A DNA stretch of 64,000 nt, taken from assembly GCF_037996645.1 (NCBI RefSeq), contig NZ_JBBMXV010000001.1:314168-378167 (forward strand), given 5' to 3'. The DNA comes from Halalkalicoccus tibetensis (lineage in GTDB: Archaea; Halobacteriota; Halobacteria; Halobacteriales; Halalkalicoccaceae). Below the pieces are notes generated by a model that had not been told where the DNA came from, did not search any database, and worked only from the letters and a program-made list of their open reading frames with translations. Shown here piece after piece: positions 3-34,752 of this stretch (position 1 is the stretch's first letter; each line of letters opens with the position of its first letter). A program made the translations under genes and the position numbers.

Positions 3-263
3 GAAGACGAACTCTCGCTGGCCCAGCGGTGGGTCCAGGGCCGCATCGCCGACGCCCACGAGCGCATCAGCGAGGCGATCGGCGACGGGGAGAACAGCCG
101 GCTGTACGCGGCGGTGCTCTCGGCGCTCGACAACGGGGCCACTGACACGGGTACGATCGCGGAGCAGGCCGACCTGCCCGAACCGGTCGCCGAGGACGCG
201 CTGTCGGTGCTCTCGGATCACGGGGTCATCCGGCGGACCGACGACGGCTGGGCGCTCGATTAG
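3..263 (+). CDS. C-terminal part of a winged-helix protein (5' end outside window)
   Basis: An open frame runs in from the left edge and stops at 261-263, giving 86 residues. The first half looks like a charged helical segment. The last 45 or so residues read like a winged-helix domain: helix, a turn with alternating Asp and Gly, a recognition helix with LPEPVAEDALSVL, and a wing ending VIRRTDDGWALD. This suggests a DNA-binding tail of a larger ATPase or regulator, but the family cannot be named from this fragment. Its stop overlaps by four bases the end of the convergent membrane-protein gene. Confidence 0.6.
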   Translation, partial: EDELSLAQRWVQGRIADAHERISEAIGDGENSRLYAAVLSALDNGATDTGTIAEQADLPEPVAEDALSVLSDHGVIRRTDDGWALD

Positions 264-11877: not shown

Positions 11878-12876
11878 TTATCGGTCGACGTAGTGCTCGT
11901 CGAACGTCTCGACGGCGACCTTGAACGCGCCGACGATCACGGGCCCGAAGAACAGCCCCATCACGCCGAGCAGGTAGAGCCCGCCGACCACCCCGAGCAT
12001 GATCGTCGCGGGGCTGAGCCGGGCCCGGCGGTCGACGAGGATCGGTCGGAGGTAGTTGTCGGAGAGGCTCACGACCACCGCGCCGTAGACGAACAGCGCG
12101 CCGCCCGCGACCGGGCTCCCCGCGAGGACGAGCCAGGCCGCCGCGGGCCCCCAGACGAGGAAGGCGCCGACGATCGGCAACAGCGCGAGCAGCACCATCG
12201 CGAGCGTCCAGAACGCGGCGTTCGGGATCCCCGTGGCGAACAGCCCGATCCCGGCGAGGAACCCCTGGATCGTCGAGACCAGCACGTGGCCCACCAGCAC
12301 CGCCCACATGAGATCGTCGATGCGGGTCGCGAGGTCCGAAAGCACCCGGTCGGGCAGCGGCGTCACCTCGAACAGCCAGTCGACGAGCCGCCGGCCGTCC
12401 CGGAGGAAGAAGAACAGCATGAACGCCGCGAGCGCGATCCCGAGCAGCGTATGGGTGAAGGCGCCGACGAGGTCGGGCGCGCTGCCCAGGAAGACGCCCG
12501 CGAAGTTCTCGGCGGCCGCCCCGAGCGCGGCGGGCAGGTCGACCTCCTGACCCGTCGCCCGTTCGATCGCCGCCTCCAGCCCCCCGAGGTCGACCTGGCT
12601 GTCGCTCAGACGCTGGGCCAGGTCGACCGCGTCGTTCCCGACGAAGGCGACCATCGCGGCAAATGGAAGGATCAGCGCCCCGGTCGCCGCGACCATCAGC
12701 GCGAGGGCGGCCCCGGTTCCGCCGATGCGGGGCTCGAGGCGCTCGTAGACCGGCGCGAGCAGGTAGGCGATCAGCACCGCCAGCAGCACGTACTGGAGGA
12801 AGGGCCAGGCGATCGCGAGCGACAGCGCGCCGAGCGCGCCGATCACGACCAGCATGAACCCCCTGCTCACGTCCAT
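11878..12876 (-). CDS. AI-2E family (PerM-like) transporter, tandem paralogue
   Basis: A 332-residue protein paralogous to its downstream neighbour. Shared blocks include the start (VSRGFMLVVIGALGALS against IRKGFLLLLIGILSLLS), GIGLFATGIPNAAFW and the end VVGGLYLLGVMGLFFGPVIV. Both are separately promoted or co-transcribed across a 43-base gap. The function is exporter-like by family; the substrate is unknown. The duplication may have provided two substrate specificities. Confidence 0.85.
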   Translation of the reverse strand: MDVSRGFMLVVIGALGALSLAIAWPFLQYVLLAVLIAYLLAPVYERLEPRIGGTGAALALMVAATGALILPFAAMVAFVGNDAVDLAQRLSDSQVDLGGLEAAIERATGQEVDLPAALGAAAENFAGVFLGSAPDLVGAFTHTLLGIALAAFMLFFFLRDGRRLVDWLFEVTPLPDRVLSDLATRIDDLMWAVLVGHVLVSTIQGFLAGIGLFATGIPNAAFWTLAMVLLALLPIVGAFLVWGPAAAWLVLAGSPVAGGALFVYGAVVVSLSDNYLRPILVDRRARLSPATIMLGVVGGLYLLGVMGLFFGPVIVGAFKVAVETFDEHYVDR

Positions 12877-26315: not shown

Positions 26316-26353
26316 CGCGAACGGGATCGCCGGAGGTGGCGATCCCGTTCGCG
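26316..26353. repeat. Perfect inverted repeat, 16-bp arms
   Basis: CGCGAACGGGATCGCC pairs with GGCGATCCCGTTCGCG around the loop GGAGGT. It is the first (plus-strand order) of three hairpins downstream of the asparaginase gene. Confidence 0.8.
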
Positions 26354-26424
26354 GGGCGGGGAAAGGCTGGCTGACCCGGAAGCGGCGCGTAACCGCGCGC
26401 CGCGTCCTGCTGTCCTGGAGGTCT

Positions 26425-26445
26425 CCGAAAACCGGAGGTTTTCGG
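26425..26445. repeat. Perfect inverted repeat, 9-bp arms, triplet loop
   Basis: CCGAAAACC and GGTTTTCGG flank the three-base loop GGA. The stem can be lengthened by three pairs with one bulged base. Five bases separate it from the next hairpin. Confidence 0.8.
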
Positions 26446-26450
26446 GACCC

Positions 26451-26475
26451 AGAAAGGCCGCAAAGCGGCCTTTCT
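26451..26475. terminator. Hairpin 3' of the asparaginase gene, 11-bp arms, triplet loop
   Basis: AGAAAGGCCGC and GCGGCCTTTCT flank the loop AAA. On the minus strand it is the first structure after the asparaginase stop, 31 bases downstream, so it may end or stabilise that transcript. Without a T-tract the role is inferred. Confidence 0.6.
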
Positions 26476-26505
26476 TAGGGAAATGAGAAGGGCGAGCGAC
26501 TAACG

Positions 26506-27453
26506 CTAGTTAGTCGCGAGGGCTTTCGTTTGCATGAGCTCGCTGTTATAGGCACTCCCCATCCCACCCTTCCGATCACAGACGATGATCCCCGCCGTCG
26601 AGTCGGTGATCGCGGCGAACTCGTCGATGGCGCGGTCGGCCGCCTCCTGGGCGCTCGCACCTGCTTCGAGGTGGTCGACCGCGAGCCGCGAGAGGGTCAC
26701 CCGCGCGATGTCCTCGCCCGCGCCAGTCGCGCTCGCGCCGCCCGCCGGGGTACAGTAGAAGCCGCTCCCGATCTGGGGGACGTCGCCCACGCGCCCGGCG
26801 AGCGCGAGCCACCGGCCACCAGTGGAAGTCGCCGCCGCGACGTGCTCGCCGTCGCTCGCGACCGCGCCGACCGTGTCATGGTCCTTCGGACCGTGGCCAG
26901 CGGGATCGTGTCCCGCGTCGTCGTGGTCCTTCGGATCGCTCTCCAGTTCCCGCCCTTCGGGATCGTCGGCGGTCTCGCCGAACCGGTCCTCGATCCAGGC
27001 GAGCTGCTCGCGCGGCCCGCCTGCGGGCGGCTCCAGGTTTGCCCATCGCTCGCGCGTGCGCGTTGACCACAGGTCCTCCTCGACGCCGATCCCGTGGTCG
27101 GCGGCGAAGTCGACGGCGTGGACCCCCGAGAGAAGCACGTGGGGCGTCTCCTCCATCACCGCGCGTGCGACGTCGACCGCGCGCCGAACCCCGGGCATCG
27201 AGCAGGCCGCGCCCGCCTCCCTGCGGTCGGTCATGATCCCCGCGTCGGTCCTGACGATCCCGTCGCTCTGGACCGCCCCGCCGACTCCGGCGTTGAACCG
27301 CGGGGAGTCCTCGAGGACGCGGATCGCCTCCTGGACCGCCCCGACCGCCGAGTCGGCCTCCGTTCCCGCCCGCGCGGCCCCGTCGAGGACCGCCTGTCTC
27401 TCCTCGGGCTCCTCGGGCGTGCTTCCGGCTCCACCGTGGACGATCACGTTCAT
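26506..27453 (-). CDS. Isoaspartyl peptidase / L-asparaginase (Ntn hydrolase)
   Basis: A 315-residue plant-type asparaginase that self-cleaves to expose a catalytic threonine. Visible traits: start MNVIVHGGAG, SPRFNAGVGGAV, MTDRREAGA, the cleavage site HDTVGAVASDG with Thr at about 194, and the C-terminal-subunit block GEDIARVTLSR. Just before the cleavage site the linker is expanded by a His/Asp-rich duplication (PKDHD occurs twice, about 15 residues apart). Isoaspartyl peptide repair or Asn breakdown is likely. A TATA-like ATATATATTA at about 27505-27515 on the minus strand suggests a short leader. Confidence 0.92.
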   Translation of the reverse strand: MNVIVHGGAGSTPEEPEERQAVLDGAARAGTEADSAVGAVQEAIRVLEDSPRFNAGVGGAVQSDGIVRTDAGIMTDRREAGAACSMPGVRRAVDVARAVMEETPHVLLSGVHAVDFAADHGIGVEEDLWSTRTRERWANLEPPAGGPREQLAWIEDRFGETADDPEGRELESDPKDHDDAGHDPAGHGPKDHDTVGAVASDGEHVAAATSTGGRWLALAGRVGDVPQIGSGFYCTPAGGASATGAGEDIARVTLSRLAVDHLEAGASAQEAADRAIDEFAAITDSTAGIIVCDRKGGMGSAYNSELMQTKALATN

Positions 27454-28840: not shown

Positions 28841-30103
<1,263 letters not shown>

Positions 30104-30143
30104 AGCGAGTTCTTCTGGCTCTCGCGGCACTGCCGCGAGAACA

Positions 30144-30234
30144 TTGAGGAACTGGCTACGCCAGTTCCTCAAGCAATCAGACGCCGAAGGCGTCTGATCA
30201 CATCGAAGAGGTGGCCTTTAGGCCACCTCTTCGA
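30144..30234. repeat. 91-base direct repeat, copy 1
   Basis: Identical over all 91 bases to 30265-30355. It contains three hairpins with loops TAC, GAA and TTTA. An inverted copy of the middle hairpin (loop TTC) lies between the two direct copies. Confidence 0.95.
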
Positions 30235-30264
30235 TGTGATCAGACGCCTTCGGCGTCTGATTGC

Positions 30265-30355
30265 TTGAGGAACTGGCTACGCCAGTTCCTCAAGCAATCA
30301 GACGCCGAAGGCGTCTGATCACATCGAAGAGGTGGCCTTTAGGCCACCTCTTCGA
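30265..30355. repeat. 91-base direct repeat, copy 2
   Basis: Perfect repeat of 30144-30234, offset by 121 bases. The absence of any substitution means the duplication is recent or kept identical by gene conversion. Confidence 0.95.
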
Positions 30356-30381
30356 GCAGTCGGATTCCTGTGGAATCCGAC

Positions 30382-30488
30382 GACATCGAACGGATGCCGT
30401 AGACGACGGTTCTGCCTCTCACCGTTGTCGCTACGCGGGTAGGACCTGCGGAGAACTGTCGAAGCGATGGGCGGGTCGAGAACGCCGT
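30382..30488. other. Gap between hairpin array and gvpN-like gene
   Basis: About 107 bases of ordinary GC-rich sequence after the hairpin array. No gene, clear promoter or further inverted repeat was seen. Confidence 0.5.
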
Positions 30489-31412
30489 TCAGACCACGTC
30501 CTCGATCTCCTCGCGGACCTCCTCGATCTCCTCGCGGGACTCGGCCTTCGATCCCAGCACGTCGACACAGACTTCGACCAGTGCATCGTCGCCGAAGACG
30601 GTGAGCCCCTCCGCGACCATGACCGCCGCGCGCGTGCCGACGTGGAGGTCGAGGCGGTCGCGGAGCTCGCGGACGATCTCGACGACCTGCTCGATGGTCT
30701 CGTCGTCGTGTTCGTCGACCCGCGAGGAGACGATCGCGATCTCGGTCTCGCGGTTGTAGTAGTCGAGGTGGATGCCGACGAGCCGGTCGAGCAGCGCGTC
30801 CTGCGGGCGGTGGACCCCGGCGTACTCCGTCGAGTTGGAGGTGAAGATCGCCCGGAACTCGGGGTGGACCTCGACGATGCGGTCCTGGCCGCGCTGGCCG
30901 GGCCGATCGAGGACGCCCTCCTCGAACACCGAGAGGAGGGCGTTGTTCGCGGCGGGTTTGGTCCTCGAGAACTCGTTGTAGACCAGCGTCGCTCCGTTCT
31001 GGACGGCCACTGATAGGGGATTGTCGACCCAGCGGTCCCGGACGATCGACTTCTTCTTCATCACGCCCCTGACGAAGTTGTCGCGTTCCTTGTACTGGGC
31101 CTTCCCCGAGCGCTCGCCGACCAGCGAGCCGGTGTCGATCAGCTCGTCGCCGTTGATCCAGACGACCGGCTGGTCGCGGGCGGCCGCGACCGACAGCGCG
31201 AGCGCCGTCTTCCCGGATCCGGTCGGGCCGACGATGTGGACCGGGCGGGGGACGTCGAGCCAGCCGCGCATCCGCTCCTGGAGCGACTCGATCTCGTCGG
31301 TCTCGACGAACGAGCCGCCGATCGCCTCCTCGACGCTCGTCGGCGCGAACGTCGCGCCGTCCTCCCCATGCTCCCGTACGAACCGATCGAGTTGGCGTTC
31401 TTCCTTGTCCAT
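30489..31412 (-). CDS. gvpN: GvpN-like MoxR-type AAA ATPase
   Basis: A 307-residue AAA+ protein of the MoxR/CbbQ/GvpN group. It has the Walker A GPTGSGKTA at 62-70, the GvpN-like run SIVRDRWVDNPLSVAVQNGA, then LVYNEFSRTKPAANNALLSV with Walker B character, and the sensor region FTSNSTEYAGVHRPQDALLDR. These blocks closely resemble halobacterial gas-vesicle protein GvpN, which assists gas-vesicle enlargement. No other gvp gene is in the window, so this may be an orphan paralogue with another chaperone-like role. It converges on the icd hairpin array. Confidence 0.75.
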   Translation of the reverse strand: MDKEERQLDRFVREHGEDGATFAPTSVEEAIGGSFVETDEIESLQERMRGWLDVPRPVHIVGPTGSGKTALALSVAAARDQPVVWINGDELIDTGSLVGERSGKAQYKERDNFVRGVMKKKSIVRDRWVDNPLSVAVQNGATLVYNEFSRTKPAANNALLSVFEEGVLDRPGQRGQDRIVEVHPEFRAIFTSNSTEYAGVHRPQDALLDRLVGIHLDYYNRETEIAIVSSRVDEHDDETIEQVVEIVRELRDRLDLHVGTRAAVMVAEGLTVFGDDALVEVCVDVLGSKAESREEIEEVREEIEDVV

Positions 31413-32662: not shown

Positions 32663-33532
32663 ATGTCCTCGCGGGCGATCGAGTGGCACGTCGACGCCGC
32701 CAGCTCGCGGTCATTGCGGGTGATGGTTTACCTCGCCGTCGGGCTGTTCGGCGGCGGCGCGCTGCTCCTCCTCGGCGGAATGGGGTTTCTGGGGGTATCG
32801 CTGGCCCTCGACGGCGAGTACACCTATCTCGCCTGGGTCGCCCTGCTCGCCTTCATCGGCGGCCCTCTCTCGTTGGTCTATCTCTGGCCGATGCTCGTCG
32901 AACGCGAGCAGCGCCCGCCGCTCGCGTCCTTCGCCGGCGACCGGGAGATGGCCGAGCGCTACGCCGCCGTCTTCACCCGTGATCGGCTGCTGGCGGCCGT
33001 CCTCTGCGGCGCCGTCGGGCTGTTCGCGCTCGCTCTCGTCGACCCGCGACTCGCCTTCGGGGCCGTCGTCGGGTCGTTCCTCCTGCTCCCGGTCGCTTCG
33101 GGTGTGATCTCGCGCGGGCGGGTCGATCCTAACGAGGCGACGCTGACCTACATGGATCGGCCCGTCGACCTCGCCCGGATCGAACGGATCAGGCGGGTCG
33201 ATCTCGGCGGAACGGCGTTCTGTTGGCTCTCATATCACCCTGGCTACGGGAGCTTCGGCACGCCCCACCTGATCGTTGCGGTTCCCGAGGCCGCCGACGC
33301 GATCGAGCGAACAGTCGCCAGCGTGGAACCCGAGATCGACGAGGAATACGACCCGAACCGGGTGGTGCAGGCCGCACTCGGGGCTCTCGCACTCTCGTCG
33401 TTCTCGACCGCCGTGTTCGTGTTCTTCGCGGAACCCGGTAGCGCGGGTGATCCCGTTCTTCGGTGGTATATCGCCGTCGTCTTCTGTTTTTTCGGACTCC
33501 TGTTCGCCCTCGTCGCGTTCTTCTCGGGTTAG
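32663..33532 (+). CDS. Haloarchaeal membrane protein of unknown function
   Basis: A 289-residue protein with two N-terminal helices (VYLAVGLFGGGALLLLGGMG and the segment near 55-75), two central helices (110-150) and two C-terminal helices (AALGALALSSFSTAVFVFF and the final VVFCFFGLLFALVAFF). A soluble PH-like segment around 155-225 contains VDPNEATLTYMDRPVDLARI. A TATA-like TTTATTA at 32634-32640, 27 bases before the AUG, indicates a leaderless transcript. No function is known. It overlaps the convergent HMG-CoA reductase stop by four bases. Confidence 0.8.
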   Translation: MSSRAIEWHVDAASSRSLRVMVYLAVGLFGGGALLLLGGMGFLGVSLALDGEYTYLAWVALLAFIGGPLSLVYLWPMLVEREQRPPLASFAGDREMAERYAAVFTRDRLLAAVLCGAVGLFALALVDPRLAFGAVVGSFLLLPVASGVISRGRVDPNEATLTYMDRPVDLARIERIRRVDLGGTAFCWLSYHPGYGSFGTPHLIVAVPEAADAIERTVASVEPEIDEEYDPNRVVQAALGALALSSFSTAVFVFFAEPGSAGDPVLRWYIAVVFCFFGLLFALVAFFSG

Positions 33533-34752
33533 CGCCCGAGCTCCTCGTGGGCGCTCGAGAGGTGTCGGGAGGCGAGCGCCGCGAGCAGGGAGAGCTCGCC
33601 CGCGAGCGCGCCGGTCGCGATGACCTCCGCGAGCGCGTCGGCGTTCGAGCCGGCCGGGTCGCCGCCGCCGCGCAGCCCGAGAACGTCGAGGGCCTCGTTC
33701 TGCGTCGGCAGTTTCGTGCCGCCGCCCACCGTCCCGACTTCGAGGCTGGCGATCGAGAGGCTCGCGTACAGGTCGCCGTCCTTGACCTCGGCGGTCGTGA
33801 TCGCGTTCGCGCCCTCGACCACTTGGGCGGCGTCCTGGCCCGTCGCGAGAAAGGCCGCCGCGATCGTGTTCGCCGCGTGGGCGTTGAATCCCAGACTGCC
33901 GGCCTTCGCGCTCCCGATCAGGTTCTTCCGGGTGTTCGCCTCCGCGATCGCCTCGGGGGTGGTGTGGAGCCGCTCCTCGACGACCTCGCGGGGGATCGTC
34001 ACGTCGGCGGTGACGCTACGCCCCCGGCCTTCGACCGCGTTGATCGCGGCGGGCTTCTTGTCGGTACAGAGGTTGCCCGAGAGCGCGACCAGCGATGCGG
34101 TGGTGGCGTCCTCGATCAGGTCGCAGGCCGCCTGCGTCGCGATCGTCACCATGTTCATCCCCATCGCGTCCTTCGAGTCGAAGCGAAAGCGGAGGAAGAC
34201 GTTGTCGCCGACGACGTAGGGCGTGATATCGAGCAGCTCGCCGTGGCCCGTCGTTTCCTCCGCCTTCTCGCGCAGTCTCTCGACGTTTTCCTCGACCCAC
34301 TCGACGACTTCGGCGGCCTCGGCGATCCCCGAGACCCGGAAGACGGGCGCGCGGGTCATCCCCGACTTGGTGACGCGGGCGTCGCTCCCCCCGGCCGCCC
34401 GGATCACCGAACAGCCCCGGTTCACGGAGGCGATCAGCGCGCCCTCGGTGGTCGCGAGCGGGAGGTAGAAGTCGCCCTCGGCCGCGCCGCCCTCCCCGTC
34501 CTCGTTGAGCGGGATCGGCCCGGCGACGCCCATCGGGAGCTGTGCGCCCCCGATCATGTTCTCGACGTTGGGCTCGGCGTCCTCGGCCGCAAAGGAGAAG
34601 TCGCCGATCGTTCCCAGGTCGGCGTCGGTCTCGGCCTCGAGCAGCTCCCGGCGGGCGGCGGCGGCCGTCTCCGGGTCAGCATGCTCCTCGAGCTCGTGCA
34701 GACGCAGGTCGCCCTCGCGGACGCGTGCCGCGAGGTCCGCTGGATCGCTCAT
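33529..34752 (-). CDS. hmgA: HMG-CoA reductase (NADPH)
   Basis: Reduces HMG-CoA to mevalonate for the isoprenoid ether lipids. The 407-residue soluble class-I enzyme shows ENMIGGAQLPMGVAGPI (substrate loop), LATTEGALIASVNRG, the lysine region NLCTDKKPAAINA, DAMGMNMV (NADPH motif), the catalytic His region and GTVGGGTKLPTQ. This is the classic target of statins in haloarchaea. HMG-CoA synthase, the preceding step, is also in the window at 61624-63021, though not in the same operon. Confidence 0.97.
   Translation of the reverse strand: MSDPADLAARVREGDLRLHELEEHADPETAAAARRELLEAETDADLGTIGDFSFAAEDAEPNVENMIGGAQLPMGVAGPIPLNEDGEGGAAEGDFYLPLATTEGALIASVNRGCSVIRAAGGSDARVTKSGMTRAPVFRVSGIAEAAEVVEWVEENVERLREKAEETTGHGELLDITPYVVGDNVFLRFRFDSKDAMGMNMVTIATQAACDLIEDATTASLVALSGNLCTDKKPAAINAVEGRGRSVTADVTIPREVVEERLHTTPEAIAEANTRKNLIGSAKAGSLGFNAHAANTIAAAFLATGQDAAQVVEGANAITTAEVKDGDLYASLSIASLEVGTVGGGTKLPTQNEALDVLGLRGGGDPAGSNADALAEVIATGALAGELSLLAALASRHLSSAHEELGR

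What the first reader, a model, noticed from the sequence alone, without database searches (positions are those of the whole stretch)
30089..30381. Ten-hairpin palindromic array fused to the 3' end of icd
Directly visible: ten consecutive perfect inverted repeats, mostly with three-base loops, beginning within the last icd codons. A 91-base segment is repeated exactly (30144-30234 and 30265-30355), an inverted copy of one hairpin lies between the copies, and two palindromes of about 150 bases overlap. Ordinary archaeal terminators are short T-tracts. Perfect identity over 91 bases implies recent duplication or conversion. It could be a 3' RNA-protection element, a replication- or recombination-prone locus, or a mobile palindromic repeat.
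Basis: seen in the sequence. Interest (0 to 1): 0.85.

Follow-up and report, generated by a model that had tools for sequence, protein, structure and literature searches.

The report
Stacked hairpin cassettes at icd's end
The hairpin array after the isocitrate dehydrogenase gene is a stack of roughly 57-base, two-hairpin modules, each carrying its own copy of the gene's last codons; similar stacks sit at this one gene end in over a third of the salt-loving archaea examined, come and go between close relatives, and have no known family or known enzyme.

Summary
In detail: ten perfect hairpins at 30089-30381, a 91-nt exact direct repeat and two overlapping ~150-nt palindromes. The array is a stack of ~57-nt modules, each = icd end folded with a complementary arm (hairpin A) + a second hairpin (B). 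The 91-nt duplication is secondary: one 58-nt inverted copy made by two template switches at hairpin-A loops; sister species G002 has the uninverted order. Of 241 deduplicated haloarchaeal icd loci, at least 91 carry 1-4 parsed modules (52-61 nt), in at least eight family-level groups; a strict scan found 2 hits in 2.4 Mb of other sequence. Presence/absence needs at least 59 changes on the icd tree. Near-identical relatives are filled or empty, with junctions inside the 17-nt icd end. Copies differ mainly at third codon positions, so each was probably once a working gene end. No integrase, element body, viral or plasmid copy was found. Best reading: a gene-specific, non-autonomous mobile (or recombination-driven) module that regenerates the icd end. 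Mechanism and any host function are unproven.

The parts
28841..30103 (+). icd, isocitrate dehydrogenase (stop TGA 30101-30103); host of the array
   Evidence: ORF; Pfam Iso_dh E 4e-91
30084..30140 (+). Module U1 (57 nt): live icd end ACATCGAAGAACTCGCC+TGA folded with its complement (hairpin A 30089-30115) + hairpin B 30120-30140 (TCTCGCGGCA/TGCCGCGAGA)
30141..30199 (+). Module U2, first copy (59 nt): displaced icd end ACATTGAGGAACTGGC (identical to the live icd end of sister species G003, L117) in hairpin A 30144-30172 + hairpin B 30176-30198
30200..30219 (+). Left arm of module U3 up to the first template-switch point (loop TT at 30218-30219)
30220..30277 (-). 58-nt inverted copy of 30160-30217 (U3-A left arm, U2-B and U2-A right arm)
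30278..30340 (+). Second forward copy of 30157-30219 after the second switch (at the U2 hairpin-A loop)
30321..30382 (+). Module U3, complete copy: icd-end copy ACATCGAAGAGGTGGCC in hairpin A 30324-30355 + hairpin B 30359-30381 (GTCGGATTCC/GGAATCCGAC)
   Evidence: same B type in G002 (L112) and G001 (L130)
30383..30440 (+). Module U4, decayed: ACATCGAACGGATGCCGTAG with degenerate right arm and B remnant (CTCTCACCG...CGCGGG)
   Evidence: read by eye against the L117/L121 B type CTCTCACGGC
30492..31412 (-). Convergent MoxR/GvpN-like AAA ATPase gene that bounds the array
   Evidence: Pfam AAA_5 E 2e-13; syntenic in the genus

Best explanation
The array is a stack of small (52-61 nt) two-hairpin modules specific to the 3' end of icd. 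Each module begins with its own version of the last 17 nt of icd plus a stop, followed by the reverse complement of that end (hairpin A) and a second hairpin (B) that stops right before the next icd end. Because both flanks of a module are icd ends, recombination within this 17-nt sequence can insert or remove a module while always leaving an intact icd reading frame. SHOWN: anatomy, restriction to icd, scattered presence, near-identical filled/empty relatives, excision-like hybrid ends, local tandem expansion, co-adaptation of the two arms of A, and, in this window, an inverted triplication explained exactly by two template switches. INFERRED: modules are acquired horizontally, usually at the gene-proximal side, displacing the former end downstream, probably by a site-specific recombinase or an IS200/IS605-like single-strand transposase acting in trans on the palindromes. 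They are probably neutral or selfish for the host; the module works like the end-restoring attachment site of an integrative element, but without the element.
For: At least 91 of 241 deduplicated icd loci carry modules; lengths 52-61, modes 55 and 59/60. A copy lies at +30..75 in 87 loci, against about 4 expected. A strict unit scan finds 53/241 at icd and 2 in 2.4 Mb elsewhere. Two related module types (b and d) sought in 392 genomes are found only at icd, apart from coding TrkA matches. Presence/absence takes at least 59 changes on the icd tree (shuffles mean 74). Filled/empty relatives at 95.7-98.5% icd identity keep native flanks on both sides, with the switch inside the 17-nt end (L075/L082, L334/L336). 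Hairpin-A arms co-vary: own 8.4 against 4.5 swapped, max of 2000 permutations 5.1; empty loci 3.8. The second, non-coding copy differs from the live end at third codon positions in 63% of differences (176/280, unweighted detection), above the ~52% I estimate for duplication followed by neutral decay. The window's U2 end is the live end of sister species G003. Similar modules occur in different families: 97% Haladaptatus L027 v. L273 of family f5, last 300 bp of icd 85-93%. L314 has four identical tandem modules. Exact two-switch reconstruction.
Against: No enzyme found: no integrase seen adjacent to icd in 59 relatives, although that list was truncated, no second icd end within 16 kb in ~80 loci, no significant match in phages or plasmids, only chance matches in viral contigs. 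Clear cases of loss (hybrid ends in L082, L242) are easier to show than clear gains. Similarity of modules across families is often no higher than that of the flanking coding sequence, so strong constraint plus vertical descent is not excluded. Crossover points are not one fixed position, as a strict recombinase would predict, though a ~8-nt overlap region would allow it.
Confidence: 0.5

Rival explanations
1. Ancient array, no mobility: an ancestral haloarchaeon had a long icd-end array that has since been eroded and locally re-expanded only by recombination or slippage between the icd-end repeats, with homologous exchange between species.
For: Hybrid ends that look like excision products (L082 from an L075-like locus, L242 from an L029-like locus). 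Four identical tandem modules in L314. Partly repeated type order b-a-g in L273, L274 and L040. Arrays occur in many families.
Against: Non-coding copies differ mostly at third codon positions, unexpected for copies idle since an ancient duplication. The type order is not generally conserved. Dispensable noncoding modules would have to be as conserved as icd itself across families.
Confidence: 0.22
2. Attachment-site scars: each module is what is left after a full-size virus or plasmid that integrates at the icd 3' end (as e14 does in E. coli) has lost its body.
For: The module regenerates the gene end exactly as such elements do; E. coli e14 supplies the icd 3' codons and leaves a displaced 163-bp icd' fragment (PMC6379469). 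Palindromic core with ~11-bp arms.
Against: No occupied site recognised in 241 loci, no distant second end, no attP-like copy in phages, plasmids or viral contigs. Remnants have a fixed length of 52-61 nt, which random body loss would not give.
Confidence: 0.13
3. RNA element: the hairpins form a 3' UTR structure that protects or terminates icd mRNA and is kept by selection.
For: Very stable fold, z -23. The stop codon lies in the loop of hairpin A. Arms co-vary.
Against: Absent from ~60% of icd genes, including near-identical relatives. No T-tract at the array here; in filled relatives the T-tract lies after it. Not found at other genes.
Confidence: 0.1
4. The inverted triplication (30220-30340) is an assembly or library fold-back artefact; the true locus has three to four plain modules.
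For: The sister genome G002 shows the plain order. Switch points lie at hairpin loops, where in vitro fold-back also occurs.
Against: Assemblers tend to collapse rather than invent such repeats. No read data were available either way.
Confidence: 0.12

Closest known systems
PATEs, palindrome-associated transposable elements of Haloquadratum, especially the 52-bp terminal-only forms derived from IS605-type transposons (PMC3119063)
   Same: About 52-60 bp, two palindromes, no coding capacity, no target duplication, short fixed flanking sequence, haloarchaeal.
   Different: PATEs are dispersed over the genome and do not carry a gene end; these modules sit at one gene only and rebuild its last codons. 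Relation to IS605 ends not tested.
E. coli e14 integration at the 3' end of icd (PMC6379469, citing Hill et al. 1989)
   Same: Same gene, same place; the incoming DNA supplies a replacement 3' end and displaces the old one.
   Different: e14 is a full prophage with a 163-bp displaced fragment; here no body, no integrase found, 17-nt end, stacks of several.
Integron cassette arrays / CALINs (archaeal integrons, PMC9668308)
   Same: Ordered array of small units with palindromic sites at the boundaries.
   Different: No ORFs in the units, two separate perfect hairpins instead of an attC fold, no IntI seen, anchored in a housekeeping gene.
REP/BIME palindromic repeats of bacteria (from general knowledge)
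   Same: Paired hairpins downstream of genes.
   Different: REPs are found at many genes; these at one.

Membership tests
Integrative element with tyrosine recombinase using icd as attB | attL/attR copies of the gene end flank a body with an integrase | tested here: not met
   No second icd end within 16 kb in ~80 loci; no integrase seen next to icd in 59 relatives, list truncated
Integrative element with tyrosine recombinase using icd as attB | Incoming DNA restores the 3' end of the target gene | tested here: met
   Live icd end lies in the first module, displaced ends follow
PATE | Two near-terminal palindromes, no coding capacity, no target duplication | tested here: met
   boundaries inside the icd end
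PATE | Dispersed copies over the genome | tested here: not met
   Array unique in own genome, units only at icd
PATE | Termini related to IS605-type transposons | not tested
   No search against IS605 ends was made
Integron / CALIN | attC sites with conserved R''/R' core and single-strand imperfect hairpin | tested here: not met
   Units are two separate perfect hairpins; the complement of the boundary sequence ACATCGA is absent from the typical unit (read)
Integron / CALIN | IntI integrase | tested here: inconclusive
   General PF00589 integrases occur in nearly all genomes, none seen near icd; IntI not searched specifically
REP/BIME | Present at many intergenic sites | tested here: not met
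   2 unit-like hits in 2.4 Mb outside icd
Intrinsic terminator | Stem followed by T-run | tested here: not met
   None found in 29900-30600; T-tract lies beyond the array in Haloarcula
Known RNA family (Rfam 15) | Match above gathering score | tested here: not met
   Only sub-threshold hits, mostly miRNA models matching the long palindromes

The most novel reading that the evidence does not exclude
A new class of minimal mobile element: a ~57-nt cassette without genes, mobilised in trans through two hairpins, aimed at a single housekeeping gene, which replaces the last codons and stop of that gene at every insertion and stacks like beads, so that a series of former gene ends is kept as an ordered record.
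Probability: 0.35. Interest if true: 0.87.

Novelty: new variant of a known kind. Interest (0 to 1): 0.7.

Why it matters
If the modules are mobile, they are among the smallest mobile units known and show how an element can target the end of a central-metabolism gene without harm. They would also give an ordered record at one locus across a whole class, and a natural substrate for finding an unknown recombinase or transposase in haloarchaea. If they move only by recombination, the locus is a clear natural case of short repeats that keep a gene intact while its 3' end is swapped, including during replacement of the whole icd gene by a foreign copy, as seems to have happened in this genome.

Tried and rejected
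Viral, phage and plasmid origin: eight IMG/VR pattern scans and blastn against phages and plasmids gave nothing that could be placed at an icd end; the 14 hits were inspected and are chance, and the single hit is a spacer in an unrelated CRISPR array. Integrase next to icd: none seen (the table was truncated at E 3e-12). Full-length element with a distant second icd end: the hits in 1.55 Mb look like coding chance matches. CRISPR-like reading rejected: the repeats are diverged coding ends, not constant repeats. The idea that the palindromes decay with distance from the gene was tested and not supported among parsed units (A 8.4 v 8.6, B 8.2 v 7.6), although terminal copies are degenerate. Transfer of modules together with a long icd tract was checked and not seen. 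Paper searches failed on input; one search returned no paper. Rfam miRNA hits are artefacts of long palindromes. A first, weighted count of third-position differences was biased by the scoring matrix and was repeated without weights.

Full report
OBSERVATION. The array is real and at the stated coordinates. Ten perfect hairpins run from 30089 to 30381, with the icd stop codon in the loop of the first. The 91-nt repeat is exact. The two ~150-nt palindromes have 58-nt perfect cores. The RNA fold is 23 sd better than shuffles. It is the only such place in its 3.6-Mb genome.

WHAT THE HAIRPINS ARE. Read against the icd reading frame, the stems at 30089, 30144, 30203 and 30324 are versions of the last icd codons: ACATCGAAGAACTCGCC-TGA, ACATTGAGGAACTGGC, ACATCGAAGAGGTGGCC; a degenerate one follows at 30383 (ACATCGAACGGATGCCGTAG). 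Each is followed by its own reverse complement and then by a second, unrelated hairpin that ends just before the next icd-end copy. The array is therefore a series of modules: U1 30084-30140, U2 30141-30199, U3 30321-30382, U4 from 30383. Hairpin A = icd end + complement; hairpin B = spacer hairpin.

THE 91-nt REPEAT IS SECONDARY. The assembled sequence equals U1-U2-U3-U4 plus one event: forward synthesis to the loop of the U3 hairpin (30219), a 58-nt inverted copy of 30160-30217 at 30220-30277, then forward synthesis again from the U2 hairpin loop. Two template switches at two hairpin loops explain it exactly. The sister genome G002 has the same order of hairpin B types without the inversion (L112). 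An assembly or fold-back artefact remains possible for this part only.

DISTRIBUTION. At least 91 carry modules: 73 with one, 13 with two, 3 with three, 2 with four parsed; all but three units are 52-61 nt long, with modes 55 and 59/60. A few further arrays were missed by the parser. They occur in at least eight family-level groups, among them f1 8/8 (this count includes the window and its own second icd), f4 12/42, f5 23/52, f7 2/4, f8 25/50 and f13 2/4. A strict unit scan found 53 at icd and 2 in 2.4 Mb of other sequence. A search of 392 genomes for two related module types found them only at icd; the other matches are TrkA coding sequence.

DYNAMICS. On a tree of icd itself, presence/absence needs at least 59 changes among 240 tips (shuffled labels: mean 74, minimum 64). 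Close relatives are filled or empty: Haloarcula argentinensis L075 v. H. sebkhae L082 (98.5% icd identity), L334 v. L336, Haloferax L029 v. L243. Sequence on both sides is native and the switch lies inside the 17-nt icd end. In Haloferax, L029 has one module and L039 the same module plus another on the gene side. L082 and L242 have ends that look like recombinants of an upstream and the last copy, that is, excision products. L314 has four identical modules in tandem. Module U2 of the window begins with the sequence that is the live icd end in sister species G003 (L117).

TWO QUANTITATIVE TESTS. First, the coding left arm and the non-coding right arm of hairpin A are co-adapted: mean pairing score 8.4 for own arms, 4.5 for swapped arms, at most 5.1 in 2000 permutations; empty loci score 3.8. 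Relatedness of the sequences is not corrected for, but many different compensated versions occur. Second, in 59 loci with an unweighted match of at least 9/17, the displaced copy differs from the live one at third codon positions in 176 of 280 differences (63%). Neutral expectation is 35%, and my estimate for one coding and one idle copy after duplication is about 52%. So the copies seem to have diverged while coding, in different lineages, and then come together. The detection is somewhat biased towards good copies, which limits this argument.

HORIZONTAL SPREAD. Similar modules occur in different families: L027 (Haladaptataceae) and L273 (family f5) share 97% over the 38-nt non-icd part; within Haloferacaceae, L039 Haloferax and L040 Halogranum share 92%. 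The last 300 bp of icd show no raised identity next to the module, so long tracts were not moved together. However, these flanks are 80-93% identical anyway, so the excess is modest, and constraint with vertical descent remains a rival.

NO ENGINE FOUND. No integrase was seen adjacent to icd in 59 relatives (the printed list was cut at E 3e-12). No second icd end lies within 16 kb in about 80 loci. Phages, plasmids and IMG/VR gave no match that could be tied to an icd end. Pfam confirms icd and the convergent AAA (MoxR/GvpN-like) gene. No T-run terminator is in the array, and in Haloarcula the T-tract lies beyond it.

READING. The modules behave like small cassettes that can enter and leave the icd 3' end without harm because each carries that end. 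They work like the end-restoring attachment site of an integrative element such as e14 of E. coli, which also uses icd (PMC6379469), but they are not members of that kind: body and integrase are lacking. In size and anatomy they recall the 52-bp terminal-only PATEs of Haloquadratum (PMC3119063), but they are not dispersed. A review of archaeal tyrosine recombinases names coding targets such as HMG-CoA reductase for virus BJ1 and does not mention isocitrate dehydrogenase (PMC8371274). I found no paper describing this array in the open-access library searched; subscription literature was not covered. Whether a recombinase, a single-strand transposase or plain repeat recombination drives it is open; I put about 0.5 on a mobile module, 0.22 on erosion of an ancient array, 0.13 on scars of larger elements and 0.1 on an RNA function.

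Noticed in passing
28841-30103: The window's icd is 89% identical to Halobium (Haloferacaceae) but only 77-81% to icd of its own genus, while the neighbouring genes are syntenic with the genus and mostly closer (about 70-93%). This looks like in-situ replacement by a foreign copy, with the 3' array kept in genus style.
   Followed up: partly
G000:C3:506756-508006 (L129, L358): A second icd in the same genome, 88% identical, with several 60-bp windows identical to the window copy (60/60), suggesting gene conversion, and one decayed module at its end.
   Followed up: partly
26316-26517: Four perfect hairpins between the asparaginase-type gene and the next gene, one spanning the gene's stop codon (26496-26517), without repeated gene ends.
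   Followed up: partly
33529-34752: HMG-CoA reductase gene, a reported coding target of halovirus BJ1 (PMC8371274); whether an element sits here was not checked.
   Followed up: no
L314 (G225:C1:3144233-3161489), just after the icd stop: Four exactly identical 56-nt modules in tandem, the clearest recent expansion.
   Followed up: no
L319 about 12625-12720 (G312:C1): Tandem copies of CGGGCGGGACTGAAAGGGGC about 56 nt apart around a long hairpin; one of the two unit-like hits outside icd; nature not examined.
   Followed up: no
L362 10860-11080 (IMGVR_UViG_3300048014_000353): A CRISPR array (repeat CTATCCCCGTGCGTACGGGGAGCAC) inside a contig classed as viral in IMG/VR; found by a chance match of one spacer to a module pattern.
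   Followed up: no
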